Source: Ramlibacter alkalitolerans
Lineage (GTDB): Bacteria; Pseudomonadota; Gammaproteobacteria; Burkholderiales; Burkholderiaceae_C
Assembly (NCBI RefSeq): GCF_016722765.1
Contig: NZ_JAEQND010000003.1
Span: forward strand, 1 to 64,000
Direction: 5' to 3'
DNA: 64,000 nucleotides
Shown: positions 20,287 through 47,019 of the stretch, one piece after another
Layout: each line of letters opens with the position of its first letter
Position numbering within the stretch: the stretch's first letter is position 1
Made by a program: the position numbers and the translations under genes
Notes under the pieces: model-generated
What the model saw: only the letters and a program-made list of their open reading frames with translations
What the model was told of the DNA's origin: nothing
The model's database searches: none

Positions 20287-20361
20287 AGGCGAAGTCGTCC
20301 AGCCCTTGAACGCCCGCTGGAAGGCGTGCGAATCCGCGAATGCGGATTCGTCCGCGATGTC
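20287..20361 (-). pseudogene. Possible AraC-family regulator remnant
   Basis: A 25-residue stretch reads DIADESAFADSHAFQRAFKG and continues WTTSP. It looks like the second helix-turn-helix of AraC regulators (consensus A-x-x-x-GF-x-D-x-S-x-F-x-R-A-F-K-x-W-x-G-x-SP). No further domain is visible on either side. It lies between the broken Bug gene and the end of the isocitrate-lyase-like gene. The match is short and could be chance. Confidence 0.35.
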
Positions 20362-21250
20362 ACTGGGCCCAGCGCCGCTCGAACGCCCACACGTCTTCGA
20401 AGCCGACGAGCAAATGCAGTTGCTGCATGTCATACCGGGGCACCGGCGACCCCGCCGTCGTCCCCTCCGCGGCCAGTGAGGCGAGTGCGGCGGCCATGGC
20501 GGCGCAGGCGGACTGCATCAGCACGGCCGGCCAGATCGCGAGCGCGAAGCCCAGTTCCTCGAGCCGGCGCGCCGACAGCTCCGGCGAGCGGCCCGTGGGC
20601 ACCATGTTCGCGATCAGCCAGGCACCTTCGCCGGCGAGCTCGCCGCCGATGCGCCTGAATTCCTCTTCGCTTTCCGGCGATTCGACGAACACGATGTCGG
20701 CGCCCGCCTTGGCGAAGGCCTTGCCGCGCGCGATGGCCTCGTCGAGCCCGAGTGCCGTCCGCGCGTCGGTGCGGGCGATGATCAGGAAGTCCCTGCTGCG
20801 GCGGGCCTCGACGGCCACCTCGATGCGGCGCACGGCGTCCGCCAGCGGCACGACCCGCCGGTTCGGCGTGTGGCCGCATTTCTTCGGCGATTCCTGGTCC
20901 TCCAGCTGGATCGCCTGCACGCCCGCTTCCTCGTAACCGCGCACGGTGTGGCGGATGTTGATCAGCCCGCCGAAGCCGGTGTCGGCGTCGGCGATCAGCG
21001 GCTTGCCCACGCCATGCGCGATCGTGCGCGCGCGCTGCTGCATGTCCGTGTAGCCGGCGAGCCCCGCGTCCGGCAGGCCCAGGTGCGACGCGGAAACGCC
21101 ATAGCCCGTCATGTAGAGGGCCGCAAAGTCCATGCGGTCCGCGATCCTCGCGCCCAGCATTTCGTAGACGCCGGGGGCGACGACGAATTCCCGACGCTGC
21201 AGGCGCGCGCGAAGGGCGCCCGCGGGAGCGGGGCAGGGCAGGGCGTTCAT
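20360..21250 (-). CDS. Isocitrate lyase/PEP mutase family lyase
   Basis: This 296-aa protein belongs to the ICL/PEPM superfamily of C-C bond lyases. The metal-binding DADTGFG, the LEDQ motif and the loop KKCGH (at QLEDQESPKKCGHTPN) are present, and KKCGH is the catalytic-Cys signature shared by isocitrate and 2-methylisocitrate lyases. The start ATG at 21250 (MNALPCPAPAGALRARL) overlaps the stop of the next upstream gene by four bases. Its two upstream partners are CoA-ester lyases, so the operon is devoted to cleaving branched hydroxy-acids. A 2-methylisocitrate or dimethylmalate lyase role fits the length; the exact substrate is open. Confidence 0.88.
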   Translation of the reverse strand: MNALPCPAPAGALRARLQRREFVVAPGVYEMLGARIADRMDFAALYMTGYGVSASHLGLPDAGLAGYTDMQQRARTIAHGVGKPLIADADTGFGGLINIRHTVRGYEEAGVQAIQLEDQESPKKCGHTPNRRVVPLADAVRRIEVAVEARRSRDFLIIARTDARTALGLDEAIARGKAFAKAGADIVFVESPESEEEFRRIGGELAGEGAWLIANMVPTGRSPELSARRLEELGFALAIWPAVLMQSACAAMAAALASLAAEGTTAGSPVPRYDMQQLHLLVGFEDVWAFERRWAQ

Positions 21251-22218
21251 GTCGCTTCCTTCGGGTGATCGATCAGTGCCTGTCGTTCGGCGATGTTGGC
21301 GGCCAGCTTCCCGTGCGCCATGTCGACCAGCACGCCACCGGCGCCGACGGCCCCCTGACCGTCGCGGGTGGTCTGCGCCAGCAGCTCGCGCGTGCGGGCA
21401 GCCCAATCGAGCTCCTCGCGCGAGGGCGAGAACACCTCGTTGGCCAGTTCGATCTGCGTGGGGTGGATGGCCCACTTGCCCTCGAAGCCGAGTGCCCTCG
21501 CACGTTCGGCGCAGGCGCGGTAGCCCTCGGCGTCGGCGTAGTCGGTGTAGGGCCCGTCGACCGGGCGCAGCCCCCAGGCGCGGCAGGCGTTGGCGATGCG
21601 CGCCATGGCGAAGTGCCACTGGTCGTTCCAGTGCCGACCGCGCTGTCCGCCGGCGCCGGCATCGGTGAGCACGGCGTACTGCGCATTCGGCCGGCCGAAC
21701 ACGCGGTCGTGCGTGCGCATGTCGATGCTGTAGTCGCCCACGCCGAAGATCATCGCCTCCAGCCGGTCCGAAGCCTGCGCGATCTCCTCGACGTTGGCGA
21801 CGCCGCGCGCGGTCTCGATCAGCACCTCGATGCCGATGCGCCTGGCGCGGCCGGTCTCGCGCTCCACCAGCGTCAGCAGCTGGTCGACGAATCGCACGTC
21901 GGCGGCGCAGGAGGTCTTGGGCAGCAGGATCAGGTCCAGCCGCGGCGCCTGCCGCGCGAGGTCCACGATGTCGCGCAGGGCCCAGGGGGTGTCCAGCCCG
22001 TTCACGCGCACGGCGACGGTCTTGCTGCCCCACTCGATCTCGCGCAGCGCCTGCAGCGCCTGCGCGCGCGCTTCCTCCTTCTGGGCCGAAGCCACCGCGT
22101 CCTCCAGGTCCAGGAAGAGCGCATCGGCGGCGCTTTCGGCGGCCTTCGCGAGGAAGCGCGGACGCGTGGCGGGAACGGCCAGCTCGCTGCGTTGCAGGCG
22201 GTCTTGACGATGGTTCAT
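21247..22218 (-). CDS. HpcH/HpaI-type CoA-ester lyase (malyl-CoA lyase-like)
   Basis: The 323-aa protein belongs to the CitE/malyl-CoA lyase group, which cleaves a 3-hydroxyacyl-CoA diacid into acetyl- or propionyl-CoA and an oxoacid. Characteristic blocks are ALFLDLEDAVASAQKEEAR, VRVNGLDTPWALRD, LILLPKTS, GIEVLIETARGVANVEEI with the metal Glu, and MIFGVGDYSIDM with the metal Asp. Its C-terminal part (KWAIHPTQIELANEVFSPS) is typical. Compared with the two other CitE-like proteins of this locus it is longer and nearer to L-malyl-CoA/beta-methylmalyl-CoA lyase. Four-base overlaps on both sides show a tight operon. Confidence 0.88.
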   Translation of the reverse strand: MNHRQDRLQRSELAVPATRPRFLAKAAESAADALFLDLEDAVASAQKEEARAQALQALREIEWGSKTVAVRVNGLDTPWALRDIVDLARQAPRLDLILLPKTSCAADVRFVDQLLTLVERETGRARRIGIEVLIETARGVANVEEIAQASDRLEAMIFGVGDYSIDMRTHDRVFGRPNAQYAVLTDAGAGGQRGRHWNDQWHFAMARIANACRAWGLRPVDGPYTDYADAEGYRACAERARALGFEGKWAIHPTQIELANEVFSPSREELDWAARTRELLAQTTRDGQGAVGAGGVLVDMAHGKLAANIAERQALIDHPKEAT

Positions 22219-23150
22219 GTTGATGCGGTGGAAGATGATTGGGCGGATTTCTGCTCGCGCTGGCGCACCAGTGCGGCCCGGCGCAGCAGGCGTTCGGCGG
22301 GGCCGACGAGGTCGATGGCGACGAACACGCCGTCAGCGACGGCCGTGCCGTGTCCCTGCGCGAGGGCGGCGCGGTAACCGGCCACCAGCCGTTCGGCGCG
22401 CTGCACTTCCGCGGGCGTGGGCGAGAACGTTGCGTTGGCCACGGCGACCTGCGCAGGGTGGAACACGACCTTGCCGGCGAAGCCCAGCTCGCGCGCCAGC
22501 AGCGCGTCGGCGCGGGTGGCCTCGGCGTTGCGCACGTCCAGGAACCAGGCTGCATCGATGGCCTGGATCCCGACGGCACCGGCGGCGGCGGAGATGGCGG
22601 AACGCGCGAACAGCAGCGCATTGGCGGTGATGGCCGCACCGGTGGCGGCCGTGTAGTCGCCGGAGCCGAAGAACAGGGCGGTGGTGCGCGTGCAGGCCTC
22701 GGCGATCGGCAGCGCCTGCAGGATTCCGCGCGGCGTCTCCAGCATGGCCACCAGCTCGCGCGGGCGCTGCACGCCCTGCTCGCGTTCCAGCGTCTGCAGC
22801 AGCGCGTCGAGCGCGTGCAGTTCCGCCGCCGTTTCGACCTTGGGCACCATGATCGAGTCCAGCAGCGCGAGCGGCAGCGCGGCGAGGTCGGCGGCGCCGA
22901 AGCCGGAGCCCAGGGTGTTGATGCGCACGCACAGCTCGCGACCGCATCCCTGCAGTTCGCGCAGTGCGCGGCCCACCAGCTCGCGCGCCTGCGCCTTCGC
23001 GGCGGGCGGCACGCTGTCCTCCAGGTCGAGGACGAGCGCATCGGCGCCGTACGCCGCCGCCTTGCGCATGCGGTCCGGCCGGTTGCCCGGCGTCATGAGC
23101 ATCGAGCGCCGCAGGCGCGGCGCGGCTTCGGGAGAAGGAGGCGTGTTCAT
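22215..23150 (-). CDS. CoA-ester lyase (CitE family), first gene of minus operon
   Basis: This 311-aa protein starts at the ATG 23150 (MNTPPSPEAAPRLRRSML). It has MTPGNRPDRMRKAAAYGADA, LVLDLEDSVPPAAK, the Arg of VRINTLG, VAMLETPRGILQALPIAEAC with the metal Glu, and ALFFGSGDYTAATGA with the metal Asp. These are the family ligands for Mg2+ and the CoA-ester carboxylates. Together with its two downstream neighbours it forms a three-lyase operon. The promoter lies in the 154-bp gap shared with the divergent amidase gene, which holds the GTAC-rich operator. The likely reaction is cleavage of a citramalyl-CoA-like thioester. Confidence 0.87.
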   Translation of the reverse strand: MNTPPSPEAAPRLRRSMLMTPGNRPDRMRKAAAYGADALVLDLEDSVPPAAKAQARELVGRALRELQGCGRELCVRINTLGSGFGAADLAALPLALLDSIMVPKVETAAELHALDALLQTLEREQGVQRPRELVAMLETPRGILQALPIAEACTRTTALFFGSGDYTAATGAAITANALLFARSAISAAAGAVGIQAIDAAWFLDVRNAEATRADALLARELGFAGKVVFHPAQVAVANATFSPTPAEVQRAERLVAGYRAALAQGHGTAVADGVFVAIDLVGPAERLLRRAALVRQREQKSAQSSSTAST

Positions 23151-23243: not shown

Positions 23244-23266
23244 ATTGTACGTACATACGCACATTT
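23244..23266. promoter_or_regulatory. Candidate GntR operator, divergent lyase/amidase promoter
   Basis: The 23-base sequence begins ATTGTACGTACAT and differs at only two positions from 34521-34543, next to the gntR gene. TGTACGTACA is a perfect 10-bp palindrome and a third GCAC half follows. It lies 39 bases before the amidase start and about 94 bases before the lyase start. Confidence 0.75.
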
Positions 23267-23304: not shown

Positions 23305-24666
23305 ATGCACGTCCCGTCCCCCGCCGTGTCCGCCACCGAGCGGCTGCAGCGCAGCCTCGATGCCATCCACCAGTGGGATCCGCTGGTGAAGGCCATGATC
23401 ACGGTGGATGCGGAAGGCGCCCGCCGCACGGCCGAGGCCGCGGACCGCGCCGCCGCCGAGGGGCGCTCGCTAGGCCTCCTGCACGGCGTGCCGCTGGTGG
23501 TCAAGGACAACATCGACACCGCCGGCCTGCGCACCACCTGCGGCTCGCTCTTCTTCGAGGACAACTTGCCCGCCGCGGATGCGACGGTGGTGAGGCGCCT
23601 GCGCGCCGCCGGCGCGGTGATCGTCGGCAAGTGCACGCTGCACGAATTCGCGTTCGGCGTGCGTTCGCTCAACCCGGTGGTGGGCCAGTGCCGCAATCCC
23701 TGGGATCCCGCTCGCATCCCGGGCGGCTCCAGCGGCGGCTCCGGCGTCGCGGTCGCCACCGGCATGGCGGAGATGGCGCTCGGCACGGACACCGGCGGCT
23801 CGGTGCGCATCCCCGCGGCCCTCAACGGCATCACCGGCCTGCGTCCCACCGTCGGACGCGTGTCCAACCATGGCTGCCTGCCGGTGAGCCCGACGCACGA
23901 CACCATCGGGCCGATGGCGCGCAGCGTCGAAGAGGTCGCGCTGCTGTTCGCCGTGATGTCTGGCCACGATGCCAGCGACCCGGTGAGCGAGCCGCGCGAG
24001 TTGCCCAACTTCCTGCCCCGCCTGCGCGACGGCATCGCCGGTCGCCGCATCGGCCGCCCCCGCAACCACTACTTCGACAACGTGTCCGCGCCCGTGGGTG
24101 CGGCCATCGAGGAGGCCGTGCGCACCTTCAGCCGCCTGGGCGCCGAGATCGTCGACGTCGAGGTGCCGGGCGCCGAGGAGGCGCACGCGTGGGCGACGGC
24201 CATGATCTATTCCGACGCCTGCGCGCTGCATGCGGCGCGGCTGCAAGAGGGCGGCGAACGCTGGGGCCCGCAGACACTGGAGCGCATGCGCATGGGCCTG
24301 CGCTACACCGGCACCGACTACGCGCGCTCCATGCGGCAGCGCGAGGCGTGGTGCCGCACGCTGGAGGATGTCTTCGGCCGCGTCGACCTGCTCCTGTCGC
24401 CCTCGAGCCCCACCGTAGCGCCCCTGATCGACGACCAGCGCAGCCTGTTCGAGGCCACTCGCGCGGTCACGCAGAACACCTATGCCGGCGCCTTCGGGCG
24501 CATCCCGGGCCTGTCGGTACCTTGCGGCGCCTCGCCCGAGGGCCTGCCGATCGGCGTGCAGCTGGAGTCCGCGTGCTGGAACGAGCCGCTGCTGCTGCAG
24601 GCCGGCTGGGCCTTCCAGTCCGTGACCGACTGGCACCAGCGACGCCCGTCTCTGCCGCGCGCCTGA
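23305..24666 (+). CDS. Amidase (amidase signature family), paralogue 1
   Basis: This 453-aa protein hydrolyses an amide with the Ser-cisSer-Lys triad. Lys67 lies in LVVKDNIDTAG, the Ser pair at about 142-143 in PGGSSGGSGVAVATG, and the nucleophile Ser166 in TDTGGSVRIPAA. No signal peptide is present, so it acts in the cytoplasm. It aligns without gaps over its first 170 residues with the amidase at 32200, so the two are paralogues. It leads the plus-strand operon with a TRAP transporter behind it. The operator-like palindrome lies just upstream. The substrate is unknown; GatA is excluded by the length and by the absence of gatB/gatC. Confidence 0.92.
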   Translation: MHVPSPAVSATERLQRSLDAIHQWDPLVKAMITVDAEGARRTAEAADRAAAEGRSLGLLHGVPLVVKDNIDTAGLRTTCGSLFFEDNLPAADATVVRRLRAAGAVIVGKCTLHEFAFGVRSLNPVVGQCRNPWDPARIPGGSSGGSGVAVATGMAEMALGTDTGGSVRIPAALNGITGLRPTVGRVSNHGCLPVSPTHDTIGPMARSVEEVALLFAVMSGHDASDPVSEPRELPNFLPRLRDGIAGRRIGRPRNHYFDNVSAPVGAAIEEAVRTFSRLGAEIVDVEVPGAEEAHAWATAMIYSDACALHAARLQEGGERWGPQTLERMRMGLRYTGTDYARSMRQREAWCRTLEDVFGRVDLLLSPSSPTVAPLIDDQRSLFEATRAVTQNTYAGAFGRIPGLSVPCGASPEGLPIGVQLESACWNEPLLLQAGWAFQSVTDWHQRRPSLPRA

Positions 24667-24745: not shown

Positions 24746-25786
24746 ATGAAAAAGCTTCTGACCGCCGTCGCGGCAAGTGCCGTCCTTCTCACCGCCGGCA
24801 TCGCGCACGCCGCCGATCCCACCGTGCGCTGGAAGATGGCCGGCATGTTCGGCTCCAGCTTCAAGCCCATCGGTGGCCACATCGTGGCCATGACCAAGAA
24901 GGCGGAGCAGGCTTCGGGCGGCTCGCTCAAGATCCGCTTCTACGAGCCCGGCGCGCTGGTGCCGGTGCCGGGCATCTTCGATGCCGTCTCGCAGGGTTCC
25001 ATCGAGGCCGGCTACGCGGGCATCGGCTTCTTCACCAACAAGGAGCCGGGAATCGCGCTGTACAACGCCGCGCCCTTCACGCCGGATCTCGCCGAATTCA
25101 TGGCCTGGATCTACTACGGCGGCGGGCAGGAAGTGCTGGACGAGGTGCTCAAGCCGCACAAGATCAAGGCGATCTTCTGCGGCGTGCTGGCACCGGAGGC
25201 CGGCGGCTGGTTCCGCAAGGAGGTCAACGCGCTGTCGGACCTCAAGGGCCTGAAGATGCGCATCGGCGGATTGGGCGCCAACGTGCTGGAAAAGGTCGGC
25301 GTCTCCACGCAGGCCCTCGGCGGCGCCGACGTGTTCCCGGCGCTGGAACGCGGCGTGATCGACGCGGCCGAATACTCCAACCCGGGCGTCGACGAGTCGC
25401 TGGGCTTCGACCAGGCGGCCAAGTACTACTACTTCCCCGGCTGGCACAACCCCACCAGCCCCGAGTGGCTGATGGTCAACACCGACGCCTACGCCAAGCT
25501 CACGGCGGGCCAGAAGGCCGCGCTCGACATGGCCTGCGGCGACACCGTCGCGCGCAGCATCGCCGAGGGCGAGGTGGTGAGCATGCAGGCCCTGCAGCGG
25601 CTGCGCGCCAAGGGCGTGCAGGTGCGTCGCTGGAAGCCCGAGGTGGTCAACGAGCTGCGCCGCATGTGGTACGCCGAGGCCGAGCGCTTGAGCGGCGAGA
25701 ACGCCAACTTCAAGAAGATCTGGACCTCCATGTCCAACTTCCGCAAGGCGTACGCGGCCCAGCACGAACTGCAGCGGCTGGAGTGA
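24746..25786 (+). CDS. TRAP transporter solute-binding protein, set 1
   Basis: This is a 346-aa periplasmic receptor with a Sec signal peptide (MKKLLTAVAASAVLLTAGIA, cleavage after AHA). It has the DctP-type core, including the Arg of GLKMRIGGLGANVLEKVG that binds a substrate carboxylate, and VFPALERGVIDAAEYSNPGV in the hinge segment. The overall pattern (PTSPEWLMVNTDAYAKLTAG) resembles the receptors for 2-oxoacids or sugar acids (TakP/SmoM side of the family). The small and large permeases follow immediately. It should bind a carboxylate-bearing substrate of the amidase/hydrolase pair. Confidence 0.9.
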   Translation: MKKLLTAVAASAVLLTAGIAHAADPTVRWKMAGMFGSSFKPIGGHIVAMTKKAEQASGGSLKIRFYEPGALVPVPGIFDAVSQGSIEAGYAGIGFFTNKEPGIALYNAAPFTPDLAEFMAWIYYGGGQEVLDEVLKPHKIKAIFCGVLAPEAGGWFRKEVNALSDLKGLKMRIGGLGANVLEKVGVSTQALGGADVFPALERGVIDAAEYSNPGVDESLGFDQAAKYYYFPGWHNPTSPEWLMVNTDAYAKLTAGQKAALDMACGDTVARSIAEGEVVSMQALQRLRAKGVQVRRWKPEVVNELRRMWYAEAERLSGENANFKKIWTSMSNFRKAYAAQHELQRLE

Positions 25787-26421
25787 GCGTGGCGGCCAAC
25801 CTCGATCTCGCCGAGGCGGGCACGCCGCCGCTCGCGCCGCCGGCGCCGCGCGACGGGGCGGGCGCATTGCGGCTGGCGGAGCGGCTCGACCGCTTCGTCA
25901 CCGGCGCCGGCATGGCCGGCGGCTGGATGATCGTGCTGCTGGTGATCGTCGTGTGCATCGACGTCGTCACCCGCAAGTTCATCACCTTCCACTCCACCTT
26001 CCTGCAGGAACTGGAGTGGCACATCCACACGGTGGTGTTCGCGCTGTCCTTCGGCTTCGCCTACGTGCGCGGCGCCCACGTGCGCATCGACGTGATCCGC
26101 GACCGGCTGTCGCGCCCCTCGCGGGCGCGGCTCGAACTGGCCGGCATCATCCTGCTGCTGGTGCCCTTTGCCGTGCTGATCCTGTGGGTGGGCATCACCT
26201 TCGCGCACCAGGCACTGGTGCAGAACGAGGGCTCCACCTCGGCGCAGGGCATCCCGCACCGCTGGATCATCAAGTCGCTGATTCCGATCGGAATGGTGCT
26301 GCTGCTCACCGCGGCGGTGGCCACCGCGCTGCGCGCCTGGTGCTACCTGCGCGGGCAGGCCGATGCGCCCGAAGCCTTCGAGCAGGAACCGGTCTCGCTC
26401 GAAACTCCGGGAGCCGCCTGA
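25783..26421 (+). CDS. TRAP transporter small permease, set 1
   Basis: This 212-aa membrane protein has four hydrophobic segments in the DctQ pattern, among them GGWMIVLLVIVVCIDVVTRK and the conserved LQELEWHIHTVVFALSFGFA. I chose the GTG at 25783, which overlaps the receptor stop as GTGA; a second GTG lies two codons later. Its stop overlaps the start of the large permease (TGATG). It couples receptor and large permease in the Na+-driven importer. Confidence 0.88.
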   Translation: MSVAANLDLAEAGTPPLAPPAPRDGAGALRLAERLDRFVTGAGMAGGWMIVLLVIVVCIDVVTRKFITFHSTFLQELEWHIHTVVFALSFGFAYVRGAHVRIDVIRDRLSRPSRARLELAGIILLLVPFAVLILWVGITFAHQALVQNEGSTSAQGIPHRWIIKSLIPIGMVLLLTAAVATALRAWCYLRGQADAPEAFEQEPVSLETPGAA

Positions 26422-27794
26422 TGGACTATCTCGTCGACCACTTGGCCATCCTGATGTTCGTCGCGCTCGCCGGGATGCTGTTCTCCGGCTTCCCGGTGGC
26501 GATGGTGATCGGAGGGATCTCGCTCCTCTTCGGGCTGATCGGTGCCGCCTTCGGCGTATTCGCGCCCACCGAGTTCTTCAACTTCCTGCCGCGGATGTGG
26601 GGCGGGGCGGCCGAGAACCTCGTGCTGATCGCCGCGCCCCTGTTCATCTTCATGGGCGTGCTGCTGGAAAAGAGCGGCGTCGCCGCGGACCTGCTGCGCT
26701 GTCTGCAACTGCTGCTGCGCCGCGTGCCCGGGGGCCTGGCGCTGGGCGTCGCGCTCATGGGCACGATCATGGCCGCCACCACCGGCATCATCGGCGCATC
26801 GATCGTCATGCTGTGCATGCTGTCGCTGCCGGTGATGCTGCAGCAGGGCTACGACAAGGGCCTGGCCACCGGCGTCATCGCGGCCTCTGGCACGCTCGGC
26901 ATCCTGATCCCGCCCAGCATCATGCTGGTGATCATGGGAGACCTGATGCAGATCTCCACCGGCAAGCTGTTCCTGGGCGCCATGCTGCCCGGACTCATGC
27001 TCGCCGGCCTGTACCTGGTCTACATCGTGACGGTGTGCTGGTTCAAGCCGAAGCTCGCGCCGCCGATGCCCGCGGACGACATGTCGATCAGCACCGGGCG
27101 GCTGGTGATGATGCTGGTGAAGGGCTTCGTGCCGCCCACCGTGCTGATCGGCCTGGTGCTCGGTTCGATCTTCTTCGGCTGGGCGACGCCGACGGAAGCG
27201 GCGGCGGTGGGTGCGCTGGGCGCCACGGTGCTGGCGCTGGCGTACGGCCGCCTGTCGTGGCGGCTGGTGAACGAGTCGGTGCGGTCCTCCACGCTCACGA
27301 TCGGCATGGTGTTCCTGGTGATCCTGGCTGCCACCTGCTTCTCCTACGTGTTTCGCTCGCTGGGCGGCGACGACGTGATCCACGACTTCCTGAACGCCAG
27401 CGGCCTCGGGCCCTGGGGGCTGCTGTCGCTGCTGATGTTCGCCGTCTTCCTGCTCGGGTTCTTCTTCGACTGGCTGGAGATCATCCTGATCGTGCTGCCG
27501 ATCTTCGCGCCGGTGGTCACCACGCTGGACTTCTCCGCGCACGTGGCGGACAAGCAGGAAGTCCTCTACTGGTTCGCGGTGCTGGTGGCCGTCAACCTGC
27601 AAAGCTCCTTCCTCACCCCGCCGTTCGGCTTCGCCCTGTTCTTCATCAAGGGCACGGCGCCGCCCGCGGTCCGCATGGGCCACATCTACAAGGGCATCGT
27701 GCCTTTCGTGGGACTGCAGGTCGTGGGCATCCTGCTCGTGATGGCGTTTCCGGAGATCGTGCTCTGGCTGCCGCGTCTCCTCCTCGACAAATGA
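26421..27794 (+). CDS. TRAP transporter large permease, set 1
   Basis: The 457-aa DctM-type protein starts at the ATG 26421 (MDYLVDHLAILMFVALAGML). It has about 12 membrane segments and the family landmarks FSGFPVAMVIGG, APLFIFMGVLLEKSGVAADL, GTLGILIPPSIMLVIMGDLM and FFDWLEIILIVLPIFAPVV. It is the channel-forming subunit of the secondary importer. Length is in the upper range for DctM, and an extended loop (LAPPMPADDMSISTGRLVMM) lies near residue 215. The hydrolase gene follows 13 bases later. Confidence 0.92.
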   Translation: MDYLVDHLAILMFVALAGMLFSGFPVAMVIGGISLLFGLIGAAFGVFAPTEFFNFLPRMWGGAAENLVLIAAPLFIFMGVLLEKSGVAADLLRCLQLLLRRVPGGLALGVALMGTIMAATTGIIGASIVMLCMLSLPVMLQQGYDKGLATGVIAASGTLGILIPPSIMLVIMGDLMQISTGKLFLGAMLPGLMLAGLYLVYIVTVCWFKPKLAPPMPADDMSISTGRLVMMLVKGFVPPTVLIGLVLGSIFFGWATPTEAAAVGALGATVLALAYGRLSWRLVNESVRSSTLTIGMVFLVILAATCFSYVFRSLGGDDVIHDFLNASGLGPWGLLSLLMFAVFLLGFFFDWLEIILIVLPIFAPVVTTLDFSAHVADKQEVLYWFAVLVAVNLQSSFLTPPFGFALFFIKGTAPPAVRMGHIYKGIVPFVGLQVVGILLVMAFPEIVLWLPRLLLDK

Positions 27795-39978: not shown

Positions 39979-40689
39979 GTGAGCGCAAGCGACGACATCC
40001 TGGTGGCGGAGAAGGTCTCCAAGCGCTTCGCGGGCCGCGTGGCGCTGAACGAGGCGAGCTTGACGGTCAAGCGCGGCTCGATCACGGGCGTGATCGGGCC
40101 CAATGGCTCCGGCAAGTCCACCCTGTTCAACATCATCGCCGGCACGCTGGCGCCCAACGGCGGGCGGGTGTGGATCCGGGGGCAGGACGTGACCGGCGCC
40201 TCGGCGGCGGAGATCTGCCGCCGCGGCGTGGGCCGCACCTTCCAGATCAGCCGGCTGTTCGCCGAGATGACGGTGATGGAGAACCTGGTGGCGGTCGCGC
40301 ACGGCGTGGACGACCGCGCGGCGGTCAAGCGCGCGCGCGAACTGCTGGAGTTCCTGGAGATCACTGCCATCGCGGACAAGTGGGGCTCGGAGCTCTCCTA
40401 CGGCCAGCGCAAGCTGGTGGAGATCGCCCGGGCGCTCATGCTGCAGCCGGTGATCATGCTGCTGGACGAGCCCTTCGCGGGCATCAACCCGCGGCTGCAG
40501 AACCGCATCGTGGAGCACCTGAGGGCGCTGTGCGCCCGGGGCCTCACGGTGTTCTTCATCGACCACGAGATGCGCATCGTCCTGTCGGAATGCGACCTCG
40601 TCTACGTGCTGGCCGAAGGCAGCGTGATCGCCAGCGGCCCGCCCGAGCGGGTGCGCGACGACCCCCGGGTGCTGGACGCGTATTTCTGA
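39979..40689 (+). CDS. livG: ABC transporter ATP-binding protein (LivG)
   Basis: The 236-aa ATPase has Walker A GPNGSGKST, the signature LSYGQRKLVEIARAL, Walker B VIMLLDEPFAG and the H-loop FIDHEMRIV. The N-terminal pattern VSKRFAGRVALNEASLTVKR and NPRLQNRIVEHL are typical of LivG. The start is a GTG at 39979, preceded by GGAGGG at a distance of about ten bases. It works with LivF on the LivHM pore. Confidence 0.92.
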   Translation: MSASDDILVAEKVSKRFAGRVALNEASLTVKRGSITGVIGPNGSGKSTLFNIIAGTLAPNGGRVWIRGQDVTGASAAEICRRGVGRTFQISRLFAEMTVMENLVAVAHGVDDRAAVKRARELLEFLEITAIADKWGSELSYGQRKLVEIARALMLQPVIMLLDEPFAGINPRLQNRIVEHLRALCARGLTVFFIDHEMRIVLSECDLVYVLAEGSVIASGPPERVRDDPRVLDAYF

Positions 40690-40708: not shown

Positions 40709-41668
40709 TTGCTGAACCTGCCTGAACGCATCACCCTGAGTGAAGTCGGCCCCCGCGACGGCTTGCAAAGCCTGGACCGGTGGATAGAGACCGACGTCAA
40801 GATCGCCATGATCGACCGGCTCTCGCGGGCCGGCTTTCCGGTCATCGAGGTGACGGGTTTCGTGCGCAACAGCGTGATCCCCAACCTCAAGGACGCGGAG
40901 GAGGTCTGCGCGCGCATCGAGCGCCGCCCCGGCACCGTGTACCGGGCGCTGGTGCCCAACGCACGCGGCGCCGAACGCGCGCTCGACTCCAGGCTCGACG
41001 AACTGCTGGGGCTGATCACCGTCAGCGAGACCTACCTGCGCAAGAACCAGAACATGTCGCTGCCCGAGGCCATCGACCAGGGCATCCGCTGTTTCCGGCT
41101 CGCCGACCAGGCGGGCGTGGGCTTCGTGATGGCCGTCGGCGTGGCCATGTGGTGCGCCTACGAGGGCGCGATCCCCGAGGACAAGACGCTGGGCGTGCTG
41201 CGCCAGCTGCGCGAGGGCGGCATCCGCCGTTTCTACGTGGCGGGCTCGATGGGGATGGAGGACCCCGCGCAGGTGGGATCGCTGTTCCGCCGCATCGCCC
41301 GCGAACTGCCCGACTGCGAAGTCGGCTACCACGTGCACAACCTGTCCGGTTGCGCCACGGCCAACGTGCTGGCCGCCGTGGACGCCGGTGCCAGCTTCAT
41401 CGAAGGCTCGATCTGCGGCATCGGCGGCGGCATCGCGATGCCCACCAGCGTGGCTTCGGTGGGCAACCTGCCGACCGAGGACCTGGTGTGCATGTTCGAG
41501 GCCATGGGCGTGCGCACCGGCGTCGCGCCCGAGGAAGCGGTGGCGGCCGCGCGTGACATCGCCGCCATGCTCGGCATCGAGGCGCGCAGCCATGCGGCCC
41601 AGGTCGGCACCCGCGCGGAACTGCTGGAGCAGGGCCGCCACCATCCGCGCAATCCGCAGACCGCCTGA
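40709..41668 (+). CDS. HMG-CoA-lyase-like protein lacking the conserved Cys
   Basis: The 319-aa protein belongs to the DRE-TIM metallolyase family near hydroxymethylglutaryl-CoA lyase. Metal ligands are visible: Asp17 in VGPRDGLQ and the His pair in GYHVHNLSG. The family signature loop GLGGCPYA...SGN is changed to GIGGGIAMPTSVASVGN: the catalytic Cys is a Gly and three residues are inserted, and a Cys appears earlier in GSICGIGG. The TED motif after it (LPTEDLVCMF) is intact. The TTG start at 40709 has GGAGGA at a good distance. It probably cleaves a related 3-hydroxy-3-methyl- or citramalyl-type thioester. Confidence 0.85.
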   Translation: MLNLPERITLSEVGPRDGLQSLDRWIETDVKIAMIDRLSRAGFPVIEVTGFVRNSVIPNLKDAEEVCARIERRPGTVYRALVPNARGAERALDSRLDELLGLITVSETYLRKNQNMSLPEAIDQGIRCFRLADQAGVGFVMAVGVAMWCAYEGAIPEDKTLGVLRQLREGGIRRFYVAGSMGMEDPAQVGSLFRRIARELPDCEVGYHVHNLSGCATANVLAAVDAGASFIEGSICGIGGGIAMPTSVASVGNLPTEDLVCMFEAMGVRTGVAPEEAVAAARDIAAMLGIEARSHAAQVGTRAELLEQGRHHPRNPQTA

Positions 41669-41706: not shown

Positions 41707-42876
41707 ATGAACAAGCTCTGGTTCGCTTCCCTCGCCGCCGCGACGGCGATCGCCGCTCCCTCCTTCGCCCAGGCACAGGACACCGTGCGCATCGGCATTG
41801 CGCTGTCGCAGACCGGCAACCTCGCCGACTCCGCCACGCACTACTGGCGCGGCGTGGAGCTGTGGCGCGACGAGGTGAACGCGCGCGGCGGCCTGCTGGG
41901 CAAGAAAGTGGAGTTCGTCGTCTACGACGACCGCTCCGACCCCGCCACGTCGGCGCGCCTGTACGAGCGCCTGATCACCAATGACAAGGTGGATCTCCTG
42001 ATCTCCACCATCGGCTCGGCGCAGACCGCCACCGCGACGGCCGTCGCCGAGAAGCACAAGCGCGTGATGATCAACGGCGGCGGCGCGTCCGAGTCCATCC
42101 AGCAGCGCGGCTTCAAGTACATCTTCCAGACGGCGGCGCGCATCTCGGCCTACGTGGACGGCATCGACCCGTTGATGAAGAAGTACAACGTCAAGAGCAT
42201 GGCCTTCGTCGCGCGCGACTACTCCGCGGCGCGCGACATGGAAAAGGTCGTGAAGGGCATGGCCCAGAAGAACGGCGTCGAGATGGTGATGGACGAGTAC
42301 TTCCCGTCCGGCAACGTGGACTTTTCCTCGCAGATCGCGCGCGCCCGCCAGAGCAAGCCGGACCTGTGGGTTTCGGTGGGCTATCCGAACGAGGCGATCG
42401 AGATGACGCGCCAGTTCCGCGCCTCGAACTACATGCCGAAGATCTTCGTGCACAACGGCGTGGCGCAGGAGGACTACATCAAGGCCGCCGGCAAGGACGC
42501 CGAAGGCGCGATCGGCATGTCGCTGTACGAGCCCTCGCTCAAGACCGCCGGCAACGCCGAGTTCGTGAAGAACTTCAGCGGGCGCTACCACTACGAGCCG
42601 GGCTACTACTCCTCCTTCGGCTACACCGCGGTGAGCGTGCTGGAAGCCGCCGTGAAGAAGGCCGGTTCCTTCGACCAGGAGAAGCTGCGCAACGTGCTGA
42701 CCACACTGAAGATGGACACCATCATGGGCAAGCACGAGGTGGACCCGAAGACCGGCATGCAGCTGGGCATCCGCGGCCTGCTGGTGCAGGTGCAGGACGG
42801 CAAGCGCGAGATCGTGTGGCCCGAGGAACTGAAGACGGCCGACGCCAAGCTGCCGCTGGCGGCCGCCGCGCGCTGA
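41707..42876 (+). CDS. ABC transporter substrate-binding protein (Liv/HAAT type)
   Basis: This 389-aa periplasmic receptor has a signal peptide (MNKLWFASLAAATAIAAPSF, cleavage after AQA). The type I periplasmic-binding fold shows in VRIGIALSQTGNLADSATHY, GGLLGKKVEFVVYDDRSDPA, ISTIGSAQTATATAVAEKHK and FQTAARISAYVDGIDPLMKK. It belongs to the Liv/amide/organic-acid group and is encoded inside the operon between the HMG-CoA-lyase-like gene and livF. The specificity is unknown, but it should be the uptake receptor for the acid or amide handled by the operon. Confidence 0.9.
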   Translation: MNKLWFASLAAATAIAAPSFAQAQDTVRIGIALSQTGNLADSATHYWRGVELWRDEVNARGGLLGKKVEFVVYDDRSDPATSARLYERLITNDKVDLLISTIGSAQTATATAVAEKHKRVMINGGGASESIQQRGFKYIFQTAARISAYVDGIDPLMKKYNVKSMAFVARDYSAARDMEKVVKGMAQKNGVEMVMDEYFPSGNVDFSSQIARARQSKPDLWVSVGYPNEAIEMTRQFRASNYMPKIFVHNGVAQEDYIKAAGKDAEGAIGMSLYEPSLKTAGNAEFVKNFSGRYHYEPGYYSSFGYTAVSVLEAAVKKAGSFDQEKLRNVLTTLKMDTIMGKHEVDPKTGMQLGIRGLLVQVQDGKREIVWPEELKTADAKLPLAAAAR

Positions 42877-42887
42877 GCGGACGACCC

Positions 42888-43658
42888 ATGGACAGCGGCA
42901 AGTCCCCACCGCTCGAGGTGCAGGAGCTGACGACCGGCTACGGCGACGTGGCCGTCGTCAGGAACGCCACCATGCGCTTCCCGGCGCGCCTGATTACCAC
43001 CATCATCGGCTCCAACGGTGCCGGCAAGTCCACGGTGATCAAGGCCGCCGCCGGCCTGCTGCCGGCCTGGAAGGGCAAGGTGCTGGCCGACGGCGTGGAC
43101 ATCACCCGCGAGCCTGCGTGGCGGCGGGTGCACCGCGGCATCGGTTATGTGCCCCAGGGTCGCGTGGTCGTGCCCGAGATGACGGTGCACGACAACCTCG
43201 AGATCGGCGCGCACATCCTCAAGGGCGACCGCGGGCGCATCGAAGCGGCGATACAGCGCGTCACGCAGCTGTTCCCGGTGCTCGCGCAGCGCTTCGGCCA
43301 GCTCGCGGGAACCATGAGCGGCGGCGAGCAGCAGATGCTGGCCATCGCCCGCGCGCTGATGGCCAGCCCGCGCACGATCATCCTGGACGAACCCTCGCTG
43401 GGCCTGTCGCCGAAGTTCGTGGAGATCGTGTTCGAGAAGCTGCACGCCCTGCGCGACGAAGGGCTGACCGTGGTGATGGTGGAGCAGAAGGCTTCGCGCG
43501 CGCTCGCGGTGTCCGACTTCGGCTACGTGATGCACCTGGGCCAGGTGGTCTATTCCGGCGCCGCGGCCGAACTGGTGGAGAACGAGAACGTCAAGCGGCT
43601 GTTCCTCGGCCAGGTGCCGGAGGACATCCACCTGCTGCCCGAGGAAGCGGATGCCTGA
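42888..43658 (+). CDS. livF: ABC transporter ATP-binding protein (LivF)
   Basis: This 256-aa ATPase has Walker A GSNGAGKST, signature MSGGEQQMLAIARAL, Walker B TIILDEPSLG and the LivF-type segment VPQGRVVVPEMTVHDNLEIG. The start ATG at 42888 gives MDSGKSPPLEVQELTTGYGD. The final residues overlap the start of the next gene by eight bases. It is the second ATPase of the Liv importer. The five Liv genes are split by the HMG-CoA-lyase-like gene, so enzyme and uptake genes are interleaved. Confidence 0.92.
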   Translation: MDSGKSPPLEVQELTTGYGDVAVVRNATMRFPARLITTIIGSNGAGKSTVIKAAAGLLPAWKGKVLADGVDITREPAWRRVHRGIGYVPQGRVVVPEMTVHDNLEIGAHILKGDRGRIEAAIQRVTQLFPVLAQRFGQLAGTMSGGEQQMLAIARALMASPRTIILDEPSLGLSPKFVEIVFEKLHALRDEGLTVVMVEQKASRALAVSDFGYVMHLGQVVYSGAAAELVENENVKRLFLGQVPEDIHLLPEEADA

Positions 43659-44511
43659 ACCCACGCAAGCCGTCGCGCTGCTCGACGAACTGCCCGAAGC
43701 GCTCGCCACCGGCGAGCAGCGGCACATCTACGCGGAGATCCGGCGGCTGTCGGCGGTGCCGATGGTTGCTTTGATCTACCGCCACCTGGCCACCATTCCC
43801 GGGGCGCTGGAGTGGGCCTGGAGCGTGCTGGAGCCGGCGCTGCGCGCGGGGGCCGTGCAGCAGGCGGCCTGGCAGCTCGCCAGCCGTGCGCGCGTGCCCC
43901 GACAGCCCGTCCTTCCCGTCGCGGCGCTGCGCGCCGTCGGCATCGTGGAAGCAGACCAGCGCGCGATCGCGCAGGTGCTCGATGCCTACAACCGCGCCAA
44001 CCCGGTGAACATCGTGGCCGTGCGTTGCCTGTCGCTGCGGCTCGCCGGCGGAGCACCCCCCGCCAGCAGCGGCGTGCCGCCGCAGGACTGGCAGCCGCCG
44101 GCGGCCATCTCTTCGCTGCCGCCGATGGTGGATCCGCAGGCGATGCCGCCGGCCGTCCGCGCCGCGGCGCTGCTGCTCACCGATCGTGGCCGCACCGACG
44201 CGCCGTCCCCGCTGTGGCCCAGCCTGTACCGGCACCTGGCGCACTGGCCGTCCTTCCTGGGGCTGGCGACCGTCGTGGTGCCGCCCGAATTTGAGGCGAT
44301 CGATGCGACGGCCGCCAGGTTGCGGCAGCAGGTGGACGATGCCGCGGCGACGCTCGCGGCGCAACTGCCGGCTTCCACGTCGCACCCCGCGCCTGCCGGT
44401 GCCGAGGCGCGCTGCCTGCAAGCCGCCATCACCCAGTTCAGCCCCCGCATCCCGGAAATGGTGGTGATCGGCAACCTGCTGCGCGGCGCGCTGCCGCCGG
44501 CATCCCCATGA
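43651..44511 (+). CDS. DehI-like two-repeat helical protein, function unknown
   Basis: The 286-aa protein has two similar halves: LSAVPMVALIYRHLATIPGA with EWAWSVLEPALRAGAVQQAA, and DAPSPLWPSLYRHLAHWPSF later in the chain. Such an internal duplication is a feature of the DehI-type haloacid dehalogenase fold, in which two repeats form a pseudodimer. I see this as likely distant kinship and not as a proof of dehalogenase activity. It overlaps livF by eight bases and the nitroreductase gene by four bases, so it is a full member of the operon. The product has no signal peptide or membrane segment. Confidence 0.6.
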   Translation: MPEPTQAVALLDELPEALATGEQRHIYAEIRRLSAVPMVALIYRHLATIPGALEWAWSVLEPALRAGAVQQAAWQLASRARVPRQPVLPVAALRAVGIVEADQRAIAQVLDAYNRANPVNIVAVRCLSLRLAGGAPPASSGVPPQDWQPPAAISSLPPMVDPQAMPPAVRAAALLLTDRGRTDAPSPLWPSLYRHLAHWPSFLGLATVVVPPEFEAIDATAARLRQQVDDAAATLAAQLPASTSHPAPAGAEARCLQAAITQFSPRIPEMVVIGNLLRGALPPASP

Positions 44512-45257
44512 GCCAAGGAGAGTCCCGCGTGGACAGCACCCTTTCTTCCAAGCGGCCCTGCAGCGATGCGGTGCGCCTGAGCGCCGACCAGGCCCTGCGC
44601 ACCCGCCGCTCGGTGCGAGCCTTCCTGCCGACGCCGGTGCCGCGCACCGAGGTGGAGGAACTGCTGGCCCTGGCCAGCCGCAGCCCGAGCGGCAGCAACA
44701 TCCAGCCGTGGAAGGTGCACGTGTTCTCCGGCGCGCTGCGCCAGCGGATCACGCGCGAGATCTGGGCCGCCCTCGACGCCGGCCGGGCCGGCGAGCACAA
44801 GCGCGAGTGGAACTACTACCCGCAGCAATGGCGCGAGCCCTACCTGGGGCGGCGGCGCAAGATCGGCTGGGACATGTACGGCCTGCTGGGGATCCCCAAG
44901 GGTGACTTCGCGCGCACCGAGGCGCAGCGGCGCCAGAACTACGACTTCTTCGGCGCCCCGGTGGGCATGATGTTCACGCTCGACGAGGACATGGAGATCG
45001 GCAGCTGGCTCGATCTCGGCATCTTCCTCGGCAGCCTGGCGGTGGCGGCGCGCGGCCACGGGCTCGATACCTGCCCGCAGGCCGCGTTCGCGGACTTCCA
45101 CCGCATCCTGCGGCCGCTGCTGGGCATCCCCGACAACGAGATCATCATCTGCGGCATGGCGCTGGGCCACGCCGACTCCGACGCTCCCGTCAACCGGCTG
45201 CGCACCGAGCGCGCGGCGCCCGGGCAGTTCGCCCGCTTCGAAGGGTTCGAGGAATGA
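44508..45257 (+). CDS. Nitroreductase-family flavoprotein
   Basis: This 249-aa FMN-dependent oxidoreductase has the N-terminal FMN-phosphate motif TRRSVRAFLPTPVPRTEVEE, the block LASRSPSGSNIQPWKVHVFS, and the C-terminal DNEIIICGMALGHADSDAPV and NRLRTERAAP. Family members reduce nitro groups, quinones or activated C=C bonds with NAD(P)H. In this operon a reductase of an unsaturated acid or an imide would fit, but no substrate can be assigned. Overlaps of four bases on both sides show translational coupling. Confidence 0.9.
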   Translation: MSQGESRVDSTLSSKRPCSDAVRLSADQALRTRRSVRAFLPTPVPRTEVEELLALASRSPSGSNIQPWKVHVFSGALRQRITREIWAALDAGRAGEHKREWNYYPQQWREPYLGRRRKIGWDMYGLLGIPKGDFARTEAQRRQNYDFFGAPVGMMFTLDEDMEIGSWLDLGIFLGSLAVAARGHGLDTCPQAAFADFHRILRPLLGIPDNEIIICGMALGHADSDAPVNRLRTERAAPGQFARFEGFEE

Positions 45258-45760
45258 GCGGCATGGTGCAATTCGAGGGCACGGCCACCGTGCTCGGCGA
45301 CGACGTCGACACCGACATCATCTTCCCCGCGCGCTACCTCGCCGTGCTGCGGCCGCAGGACCAGGCGCGGCACCTGTTCGAGCCGCTGGGCGAGGCCGTG
45401 CGCGAGCAGGTGATGGCCGGTGGCGTGATCGCTGCCGGCTGGAACTTCGGCTGCGGCTCCTCGCGCGAGCACGCGGTGACGGCCATGCTCGGTGCCGGCG
45501 TGCGGCTGGTCGTTGCCAAGTCGTTTTCGCGCATCTTCTTCCGCAACGCAGTCAACAACGGGCTGGCCGTCGTGATGAACGAGGAACTCGCCGGCGCGGT
45601 GCGCGACGGCGATGCCGTGCAGGTCGACCTGCGCGCCGGCCAGGCGCGCGTGGCCGGCGCCGGCCACGCCTTCCCGCCGCTGCCCGGGCCCGTGCTGGAG
45701 ATCCTCGCCGCCGGCGGCCTGTGGGCCGCGAAGACCGGCATGACCGGAGCGAACGCATGA
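45254..45760 (+). CDS. LeuD-type dehydratase small subunit
   Basis: This 168-aa small (swivelling-domain) subunit of the aconitase/isopropylmalate-isomerase family has DDVDTDIIFPARYLAVL, the substrate loop NFGCGSSREHAVTAMLGAGV and KSFSRIFFRNAVNNGLAV. The large subunit follows directly with a four-base overlap. The pair is separate from leucine biosynthesis genes and sits in a catabolic operon, so it more probably acts on a methylated C5/C6 dicarboxylate (for example a citraconate/citramalate or homoaconitate-type reaction). The residues that would settle the substrate cannot be judged without a structure-based comparison. Confidence 0.87.
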   Translation: MSGMVQFEGTATVLGDDVDTDIIFPARYLAVLRPQDQARHLFEPLGEAVREQVMAGGVIAAGWNFGCGSSREHAVTAMLGAGVRLVVAKSFSRIFFRNAVNNGLAVVMNEELAGAVRDGDAVQVDLRAGQARVAGAGHAFPPLPGPVLEILAAGGLWAAKTGMTGANA

Positions 45761-47019
45761 ACGCGACCCTGGCAGAGAAGGTGATGGGGCGCCTGGCCGG
45801 CCGCGCGGTGCGCGCCGGCGAGATGGTGGAGATCGCGCCGGACTGGACCTTTGCCCTCGACGACGGCATCGGCCTGATCGACCAGAATTTCCGGCGCTAC
45901 GGCGTGGAGAAGCTGGCGCGCCCGGACCGCATCGCGCTGTTCTACGACCACTACGCGCCCGCCGACACGCCGCTGCACGCGCAGATGCACCGCATCGGCC
46001 GCCAGCTGTTCGAGCGCTTCGGGCTGCCGCGCGAGCGCCTGTTCGACGTCGGCGCGGGCATCTCGCACCAGGTGGCCGTGGAAAGCGGCATGGTCCTGCC
46101 CGGGCAGATGCTCACCAACATGGATTCGCACACGATCACCATCGGTGCGGTGGGCGCGCTGGGCTGCGGCATCGGCGGCGCCGAGATGGCGTCGCTGTGG
46201 GCGCACGGCAAGCTGTGGTTCCGGGTGCCGGAGAGCATCCGCATCGACCTCGAAGGCACGTTGCCGGCCGGCACCTGCGCCAAGGATCTCGTGCTGTCCA
46301 TCCTGGCGCGGCTCACCGCGCGCGGGGCGATCTACAACGCGATCGAGTACCACGGCCCGGCGCTGGCCGGCCTGTCCATCCCCGAGCGCATGACCCTGTG
46401 CAACATGGGCATCGAGATGGGCGCGAAGTTCGCCGTGGTGCCGGGCGACGCGGTCACGCGCGCGCACTTCGAGGCGCTCGGGATCGACGCTGGCGAGATG
46501 CCGGGGCCCGACCCCGGCGCCAGCTACCGCGTGCAGCACCGCTTCGACCTGTCGACGGTGGAACCGCTGGTCTCCGCCCCCAGCAAGGTCGACAACGTGC
46601 ATCCGGCGGCGCAGTTCGCCGGCACGCGCATCCACCAGGCCTTCCTGGGCACCTGCACCAACGGCCGGCTCGAAGACCTGGAGCAGGCGGCGGCGATCCT
46701 GAAGGGAAAGCGGGTCGCGTCGGGCGTGCGCATGGTGGTCACGCCGGCCTCGCGCCAGGTGTATTCGCGGGCGATGCAGTCGGGCGTGCTGCAGGTGCTG
46801 CTGGACGCCGGCGCCACGATCACCACGCCGGGCTGCGGCGCCTGCGCCGGCATGCACCAGGGCGTGCTGGCGGCCGAGGAAGTCTGCATCTCCTCCTCGA
46901 GCCGCAACTTCCTGGGCCGCATGGGCCACCGCGACGCGCTGGTCTACCTGGGCTCGCCGGCCACCGTCGCAGCCAGCGCGCTCAGGGGCACGATCACCGA
47001 TCCCCGCGCGGTCCTTTAG
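45757..47019 (+). CDS. LeuC/homoaconitase-type dehydratase large subunit
   Basis: The 420-aa protein (ATG at 45757, MNATLAEKVMGRLAGRAVRA) binds a 4Fe-4S cluster through three cysteines: one in GTCTNGRLED and two in TTPGCGACAGMHQG. The block TNMDSHTITIGAVGALGCGI is the substrate and cluster neighbourhood. Length and order fit the archaeal-type LeuC/homoaconitase branch, which works with separate small subunits. It is the last gene of the 13-gene operon. Its 3' end overlaps the 3' end of the convergent HpaB-like gene by 26 bases. Confidence 0.88.
   Translation: MNATLAEKVMGRLAGRAVRAGEMVEIAPDWTFALDDGIGLIDQNFRRYGVEKLARPDRIALFYDHYAPADTPLHAQMHRIGRQLFERFGLPRERLFDVGAGISHQVAVESGMVLPGQMLTNMDSHTITIGAVGALGCGIGGAEMASLWAHGKLWFRVPESIRIDLEGTLPAGTCAKDLVLSILARLTARGAIYNAIEYHGPALAGLSIPERMTLCNMGIEMGAKFAVVPGDAVTRAHFEALGIDAGEMPGPDPGASYRVQHRFDLSTVEPLVSAPSKVDNVHPAAQFAGTRIHQAFLGTCTNGRLEDLEQAAAILKGKRVASGVRMVVTPASRQVYSRAMQSGVLQVLLDAGATITTPGCGACAGMHQGVLAAEEVCISSSSRNFLGRMGHRDALVYLGSPATVAASALRGTITDPRAVL

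What the first reader, a model, noticed from the sequence alone, without database searches (positions are those of the whole stretch)
20360..47019. A 27-kb catabolic locus apparently controlled by one GntR regulator through two matching operators
The sequences 23244-23266 and 34521-34543 agree at 21 of 23 positions and contain the perfect palindrome TGTACGTACA. Each lies in a divergent promoter region. Together the two regions drive all four transcription units of the locus: three lyases; ten amidase/TRAP/hydrolase genes; gntR itself; and 13 CoA-transferase/Liv/LeuCD genes. The only DNA-binding regulator in between is the HutC-type GntR. I found no other copy of the sequence by eye in the window. 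A 26-gene locus under one local regulator is a compact definition of a pathway that I cannot name.
Basis: partly seen in the sequence, partly recalled or inferred. Interest (0 to 1): 0.8.

Follow-up and report, generated by a model that had tools for sequence, protein, structure and literature searches.

The report
Local GntR switch for catabolic locus
A bacterium keeps 26 genes, probably for taking up and breaking down an unidentified amide-containing compound, around one regulator gene, and two copies of the DNA site that this regulator very likely recognises lie in the two control regions of the locus.

Summary
The two sites match at 21 of 23 positions and are the only copies (up to 3 mismatches) in the 5.71-Mb genome. 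One further core palindrome lies beside a paralogous gntR. Relatives tie the sites to this GntR: TGTACGTACA occurs 15 times in seven genomes and 12 copies lie at this locus or its homologues; 11 of those 12 carry a one-sided extension, TGTACGTACANNCGNACA. In the closest relative each site is kept in its own place, at 21 and 22 of 23 positions. The core fits GntR/HutC operators.

"One pathway" needs a correction. The locus has two modules: an old core (gntR, lyases, CoA-transferases, Liv transporter) and a 10-gene amidase/TRAP cassette lying between gntR and the second operator. Four related core loci lack the cassette there. One distant genome holds six of its genes elsewhere, with another gntR homologue and the same core site.

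Likely chemistry: amide hydrolysis, CoA transfer, C-C cleavage; substrate unknown. Binding is untested. A local GntR with its operators is an ordinary kind of system; this is a well-supported, unnamed new member.

The parts
23244..23266 (+). operator 1, between HpcH2 (-) and Ami1 (+); core TGTACGTACA 23246-23255, one-sided arm CGCACA
   Evidence: conserved upstream of HpcH2 in L036
34521..34543 (+). operator 2, between gntR (-) and CaiB1 (+); core 34523-34532, arm CGTACA
   Evidence: conserved at the same place in L036, G005, G051, G043
33560..34429 (-). GntR/HutC-type regulator, GntR HTH + UTRA domain (P0001)
   Evidence: nearest solved relatives YvoA/NagR and DasR
22215..23150 (-). HpcH2, HpcH/HpaI-CitE-like C-C lyase
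   Evidence: conserved beside gntR
21247..22218 (-). HpcH1, HpcH/HpaI-CitE-like C-C lyase
20360..21250 (-). PEPM, PEP-mutase/isocitrate-lyase family, KKCGH loop as in methylisocitrate/dimethylmalate lyases (loop rule recalled)
23305..24666 (+). Ami1, amidase-signature family hydrolase
24746..27794 (+). TRAP transporter 1: DctP1 24746-25786, DctQ1 about 25867-26421, DctM1 26421-27794
27808..28539 (+). Ich1, isochorismatase-family amidohydrolase, near N-carbamoylsarcosine amidohydrolase
28580..31511 (+). TRAP transporter 2: DctP2 28580-29662, DctQ2 29659-30219, DctM2 30216-31511
31529..32176 (+). Ich2, isochorismatase-family amidohydrolase
32200..33558 (+). Ami2, amidase-signature family hydrolase
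34612..35871 (+). CaiB1, class III CoA-transferase
35879..36760 (+). HpcH3, CitE-like C-C lyase
36792..38003 (+). CaiB2, class III CoA-transferase
38026..40689 (+). LivH 38026-38889, LivM 38886-39893, LivG 39979-40689 (branched-chain-type ABC transporter)
40709..41668 (+). HMG-CoA-lyase-like enzyme
41707..43658 (+). substrate-binding protein 41707-42876 and LivF 42888-43658
43651..44511 (+). DehI-like protein without the catalytic Asp of 2-haloacid dehalogenases
44508..45257 (+). nitroreductase-family flavoprotein
45254..47019 (+). LeuD/DmdB-type 45254-45760 and LeuC/HacA-type 45757-47019 hydro-lyase

Best explanation
The GntR protein is a local repressor that binds, probably as a dimer, to TGTACGTACA plus a one-sided CGNACA arm. 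Bound at 34521-34543 it shuts its own gene and the 13-gene CoA-transferase/Liv/LeuCD unit; bound at 23244-23266 it shuts the three-lyase unit and the ten-gene amidase/TRAP unit. A pathway intermediate, probably a carboxylic acid or its amide, would bind the UTRA domain and release it. The encoded route most likely imports an amide or its acid (two TRAP systems, one Liv system), hydrolyses amide bonds (Ami1/2, Ich1/2), hydrates or isomerises the resulting dicarboxylate (LeuCD type), loads it onto CoA (CaiB1/2) and cleaves it (HpcH1-3, HMG-CoA-lyase-like, PEPM). Shown: the sites, their rarity, their conservation beside gntR orthologues, gene families. Inferred: binding, repression, effector, order of steps. 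The substrate is not identified.
For: 21/23 identity and only two copies in the genome. Across seven genomes 12 of 15 TGTACGTACA lie at the homologous loci (own 2/3, G043 1/1, G051 1/1, G005 1/2, G185 2/2, G435=L036 2/2, G411 3/4). 11 of the 12 carry CGNACA at the same distance. TTGTACGTACANNCGNACA hits 4 times in 3 of 349 sampled order genomes, the own genome's two included, all four at such loci, reversed control 0. In L036 (GntR 82%) both sites are kept, at 21 of 23 (operator 1) and 22 of 23 (operator 2) positions, each with its own variant arm; most of the rest of the two intergenic regions is less alike. GntR homologues often have such a palindrome upstream: 12 of 29 within 350 bases (up to 1 mismatch), against 0 of 29 downstream. 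The segment SRHT(V/I)R is kept in all 11 homologues aligned; the residue for NagR Arg48, which reads G-4, is Arg in 11 of 11, and that for Arg38, which reads G-5, is Arg in 0 of 11 (Asp61 here), while the operator has G at -4 and T at -5. Cassette link: in G411 (another family) Ami1-DctPQM1-Ich1-Ich2 lies with HpcH3-CaiB2, a 44% GntR homologue and TGTACGTACA upstream of Ami1; in G240 an Ami2-type amidase (41%) lies beside DehI-HpcH3-CaiB2 relatives. Close Ich1 relatives (51-72%) have a HpcH/CitE gene within 5 kb at 5 of 5 loci; the next 20 hits (37-45%) at 0 of 20.
Against: No binding, transcript or growth data. Consensus promoter scans found nothing in either operator region. The total number of TGTACGTACA in the seven relatives (12, G336 having none) is not far above that of the reversed control (8), so the case rests on where the copies lie. 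The Ami1 site of G411 lacks the CGNACA arm and lies in the locus of the second gntR homologue, so there the cassette may answer to a different GntR. Three core loci (G005, G051, G043) show one operator only. G336, with a more distant locus of this kind, has only a variant site upstream of its gntR. Whether genomes without the pattern also lack a GntR orthologue was not measured for the order and family samples. The chemistry rests on family names: most NCBIfam equivalog cut-offs are missed.
Confidence: 0.7

Rival explanations
1. GntR controls only the ancestral units (lyases, itself, CoA-transferase/Liv/LeuCD). The ten-gene amidase/TRAP cassette landed beside operator 1 by chance and runs from a promoter that the operator does not govern, or serves another substrate.
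For: Operator 1 exists upstream of HpcH2 in L036, whose gntR-HpcH2 junction has no cassette. G005, G043 and G051 lack it at this place, and among 8 relatives searched a close DctP1 (67%) exists only in G411, the rest being 36% or less (G051 is 81% complete).
Against: The Ami1 start codon begins 39 bases after the end of operator 1, so a bound repressor should hinder that unit too. In G411 six cassette genes, elsewhere in the genome, again have TGTACGTACA upstream of Ami1 and sit with HpcH3-CaiB2. Ich1's close relatives have CitE-like genes within 5 kb at 5 of 5 loci.
Confidence: 0.17
2. A paralogous GntR, for instance the C32 one, binds the window sites, or several HutC-type paralogues share them.
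For: The paralogue's own promoter region holds TTGTACGTACAA and TTGTACGGACAA, and the recognition segments are nearly alike.
Against: The paralogue's arm is CAGACA, not CGNACA. In the calls made the bipartite form is seen only at loci that hold a relative of the window GntR at 54% identity or more.
Confidence: 0.08
3. The sites are chance or structural repeats with no regulator.
For: Consensus promoter scans found nothing, so the regions are not proven promoters.
Against: Rarity, placement, conservation in L036 and presence at 12 homologous places.
Confidence: 0.02

Closest known systems
GntR/HutC regulators NagR (YvoA) and DasR
   Same: GntR HTH + UTRA; for NagR an operator palindrome with G at -4 read by an arginine (PMC4333415, abstract and passages seen); the matching arginine is conserved here
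   Different: Only about 48 (NagR) and 43 (DasR) bits by sequence. The second base-reading arginine is missing and the operator has T at -5. The operator carries a one-sided CGNACA arm. The effector is unknown; no amino-sugar genes among the locus genes.
Itaconate/citramalate-type degradation (CoA-transferase plus CitE-like lyase; pathway recalled)
   Same: Class III CoA-transferases beside HpcH/CitE-like lyases; all three HpcH proteins hit the RipC and citE models
   Different: These hits are below the models' cut-offs; amidases, LeuCD, HMG-CoA-lyase-like and nitroreductase genes are extra.
2,3-Dimethylmaleate branch of nicotinate fermentation (recalled)
   Same: A LeuD/DmdB-type hydro-lyase subunit above its NCBIfam cut-off and a PEP-mutase/ICL-family protein whose second-best solved relative is a 2,3-dimethylmalate lyase, after a carboxyphosphonate phosphorylmutase
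   Different: No other genes of that fermentation were looked for; resemblance only.
Maleamate / N-carbamoyl amidohydrolases
   Same: Ich1 is nearest to a N-carbamoylsarcosine amidohydrolase among solved structures (that 4l07 and 3ot4 are maleamate amidases is recalled)
   Different: No nicotinate ring-opening family among the locus genes scanned; NCBIfam equivalogs missed.

Membership tests
GntR family, HutC-type | N-terminal GntR winged HTH (PF00392) | tested here: met
   6.2e-20, 71.1 bits against cut-off 27
GntR family, HutC-type | C-terminal UTRA effector domain (PF07702) | tested here: met
   2.6e-22, 79.6 bits against 23.8
GntR family, HutC-type | operator palindrome with G at -4 in both halves beside own gene | tested here: met
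   TGTAC/GTACA core at operator 2 and beside orthologues; contact rule for NagR from PMC4333415
GntR family, HutC-type | binds the operator and is released by an effector | not testable with these tools
   needs protein
DehI-type 2-haloacid dehalogenase (gene 43651-44511) | catalytic Asp (DehI Asp189 / HadD Asp205, PMC5780510, passages seen) | tested here: not met
   Leu at that column in 7 of 7 proteins aligned, the window's included; the partner Asn is kept in 7 of 7. That chain residue 204 of 3bjx is Asp189 is inferred from a numbering offset of 15.
4-hydroxyphenylacetate 3-hydroxylase HpaB (gene 46994-48652, next to the locus) | NCBIfam HpaB equivalog cut-off | tested here: not met
   142.4 bits against 480.2; nearest solved relatives are a vinylacetyl-CoA isomerase and a gamma-aminobutyrate-metabolism dehydratase/isomerase, 286 and 260 bits, against 122 for the best hydroxylase
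Methylisocitrate lyase PrpB (gene 20360-21250) | NCBIfam equivalog cut-off | tested here: not met
   239.1 bits against 354.4
LeuD/DmdB small and LeuC/HacA large subunit subfamilies | NCBIfam subfamily cut-offs | tested here: met
   TIGR02087 150 against 108.95; NF001614 474.2 against 385; 3-isopropylmalate dehydratase equivalogs missed
Itaconate degradation lyase RipC | NCBIfam equivalog cut-off | tested here: not met
   165-190 bits against 375 for HpcH1-3

The most novel reading that the evidence does not exclude
The locus is a merged regulon for an undescribed route that opens amides or imides of substituted maleic or malic acids (for example ring fragments of pyrrole-type compounds) and splits the resulting branched dicarboxylates through CoA thioesters. 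It arose when a ten-gene uptake-and-amidase cassette entered between gntR and the regulator's second operator. The regulator belongs to a HutC-type branch that reads an asymmetric operator: a symmetric core for the branch and a one-sided arm (CGNACA against CAGACA) that tells paralogues apart.
Probability: 0.12. Interest if true: 0.68.

Novelty: new member of a known kind. Interest (0 to 1): 0.42.

Why it matters
The operator gives a precise handle on an unnamed catabolic locus: the regulator, its sites and the genes to test are defined, and a small set of relatives shows which genes are core and which are added. If confirmed, the one-sided arm would be a simple rule for telling apart the targets of paralogous HutC-type regulators in these bacteria. 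The cassette between a regulator and its second operator is also a clear example of how a catabolic regulon can grow without new regulatory sites.

Tried and rejected
Haloacid degradation because of the DehI-like gene: rejected as written, since the catalytic Asp is Leu in 7 of 7 proteins aligned, though another chemistry is open. Hydroxyphenylacetate degradation because of the neighbouring HpaB-family gene: not supported; in the window that gene lies next to a divergent TetR gene with a palindrome TGAACACTGTTCA between them.

Riboflavin breakdown (PMC12746152: abstract, section list and passages seen): the enzymes named in the abstract differ. Tetrapyrrole maleimides: the search listing gave 4 papers, none on a gene locus judging by title and abstract start. 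Two searches for a published cluster combining these families gave 3 and 2 papers, none fitting by title and abstract start; a pyrrole/maleamate search found 19, 15 listed, many on nicotine pathways. No claim that the locus is unpublished is made beyond these searches.

A wider own-genome scan with 2 mismatches in 12 bases gave 12 forward and 12 reverse hits against 15 and 19 for the reversed control, so weak sites cannot be judged. Promoter and terminator consensus scans were uninformative. I first scanned DctM1 and LivM in wrong frames (no families) and corrected this. I could not name the organism; the window genome and the G relatives are unnamed, and the named relative with this locus is a MAG titled Gammaproteobacteria bacterium (L036). 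Structure prediction and fold search were not run.
Full report
OBSERVATION. In the window the core TGTACGTACA with up to one mismatch occurs only at these two places, against 0.18 expected. In the 5.71-Mb genome the exact core occurs three times and the 23-mer with up to three mismatches twice, both in the window. The third core lies about 100 bases before the likely start of another HutC-type gntR gene, 33% identical, divergent from a tripartite-tricarboxylate receptor gene with a CaiB-type gene beyond it. GntR is the only locus protein with a DNA-binding family in these scans.

WHO BINDS. Relatives answer this. GntR orthologues were found in G005, G051, G043 (56-59%) and, at 47%, G024, and at 82% in the MAG contig L036. 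The site lies beside gntR in L036, G005, G051 and G043; G024 has only an imperfect one. In L036 there are two: one between CaiB1 and gntR, one between gntR and HpcH2. They match the corresponding window sites at 22 and 21 of 23 positions and have the same variant arms (CATTCGTACATT at CaiB1, CATACGCACAT at HpcH2). Some other stretches of these intergenic regions are alike too, but most is less so.

In the sampled order the pattern TTGTACGTACANNCGNACA occurs four times in 3 of 349 genomes, reversed control 0: twice in the window and once each in G411 and G185, both of which proved to hold the same kind of locus. In the sampled family TGTACGTACANNCGNACA occurs in 1 of 349 genomes, the window's own. 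Whether the other genomes have a GntR orthologue was not scored in these two samples. Counting every TGTACGTACA in the seven genomes that have one, 12 of 15 lie at such loci. The other three are the paralogue site, one that appears to lie in a coding repeat in G005, and one in G411 near genes unrelated to the window's. G336, with a more distant locus of this kind, has no exact core but TTGTCCGTACAA upstream of its gntR. The reversed control has 8 copies in the seven relatives searched, against 12 of the motif, so it is position, not number, that speaks. Eleven of the 12 copies at loci carry CGNACA after two free bases; the exception is the G411 site upstream of Ami1.

FIT TO THE FAMILY. GntR has the GntR HTH and UTRA domains and its nearest solved relatives are NagR/YvoA and, lower, DasR. 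In NagR, Arg48 reads G at -4 and Arg38 reads G at -5 (PMC4333415, passages seen). By the ungapped alignment the window protein has Arg71 and Asp61 at these places. Its operator has G at -4 and T at -5 in both halves. Over the 11 homologues aligned, the first is Arg in 11 and the second is Arg in 0. Upstream palindromes are common in this branch: 12 of 29 homologue genes have the core with up to one mismatch within 350 bases upstream, 0 of 29 downstream (the 29 include the closest orthologues, and some downstream stretches are shorter, down to 237 bases). The own-genome paralogue carries CAGACA instead of CGNACA. That the arm sets the paralogues apart is inference.

TWO MODULES. In G005, G043 and G051 gntR is followed directly by HpcH2 and HpcH1, and the CaiB1 unit is divergent; in L036 gntR is followed by HpcH2, where the contig ends. 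No amidase or TRAP gene of the cassette lies between. In the window the ten-gene cassette sits exactly there, so operator 1, probably the HpcH2 operator in the ancestor, now also faces Ami1, whose start codon begins 39 bases on. G185 has a rearranged core with two operators. G411 has a core on one contig with two operators. On another contig it has Ami1-DctPQM1-Ich1-Ich2 with a second gntR homologue (44%), HpcH3-CaiB2, and a TGTACGTACA upstream of Ami1, opposite a HpaB-family gene 78% identical to the window's neighbour at 46994-48652. In G240 an Ami2-type amidase (41%) lies beside DehI-, HpcH3- and CaiB2-type genes. A close DctP1 relative exists only in G411 among the eight relatives searched (67%; others 36% or less). 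So the cassette looks like an addition here, yet it has met the same kind of control twice. PEPM was not found next to a core locus as far as these were fetched, but a 48% relative sits beside a HpcH and an Ich1 gene in G224. The DehI-like gene is found in 4 of 60 genus genomes, one of them as a 29-residue fragment, and more distantly in 15 other genomes of the 349 order genomes.

CHEMISTRY. Names above curated NCBIfam cut-offs are few. Ich1 resembles N-carbamoylsarcosine-type amidohydrolases. The LeuD/LeuC pair passes subfamily cut-offs, the small one named LeuD/DmdB. PEPM is nearest to a carboxyphosphonate phosphorylmutase and 2,3-dimethylmalate lyase among solved structures. CaiB1 is nearest to CaiB/BaiF and succinate-hydroxymethylglutarate CoA-transferases, and both CaiB proteins hit the succinate-glutarate model best, below its cut-off. 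HpcH1-3 fall among CitE/RipC relatives, also below cut-off. Ich1's close relatives (51-72%, 5 loci) have a HpcH gene within 5 kb at 5 of 5 loci and a CaiB gene within 5 kb at 4 of 5. The next 20 hits (37-45%) show no HpcH gene in the stretches fetched, about 8 kb each side or to the contig end, and a CaiB gene in 2 of 20, more than 7 kb away. This supports amide hydrolysis feeding a CoA-dependent cleavage. The DehI-like protein lacks the catalytic Asp in 7 of 7 proteins aligned, so it should not be called a dehalogenase. The substrate is unknown; a substituted maleamic or malamic acid is my guess, at about one in three for the broad class.

VERDICT. The observation and the regulator assignment are strong for a purely sequence-based case. 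The kind of system is ordinary; what is new is the particular regulon, its asymmetric operator and the clear case of module insertion. Binding, repression and substrate remain to be shown.

Noticed in passing
46994-48652 (-) with 48687-49364 (+): HpaB-family gene nearest to a vinylacetyl-CoA isomerase and a related dehydratase/isomerase, divergent from a TetR gene with TGAACACTGTTCA between them. Its 78% relative in G411 lies opposite Ami1 with TGTACGTACA between them, so it may belong to the same pathway.
   Followed up: partly
19621-20121 (-): TctC/Bug receptor frame of 166 aa that matches only profile positions 137-273 of 274: possibly a gene lacking its front half, directly beyond PEPM.
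   Followed up: no
16197-19426 (-): Rieske oxygenase with VanA-type C-terminal domain (18341-19426), a ferredoxin-reductase-type gene (17359-18315) and a porin gene (16197-17213); a 51% relative of the oxygenase lies in the same G224 stretch as the PEPM-HpcH-Ich1 trio.
   Followed up: no
L046 11888-11950 (own genome C32:119888): Paralogous gntR with two sites TTGTACGTACAAGCAGACAG and TTGTACGGACAAGCAGACAG 42 bases apart; similar GCAGACAG or GCGGACAG arms appear beside other paralogues (L017, L016).
   Followed up: partly
L096 12108-12800 (own genome C28:264102): A second Ich1 (56%) beside HpcH- and CaiB-type genes and a TctC receptor gene elsewhere in the same genome, perhaps a sister pathway.
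   Followed up: no
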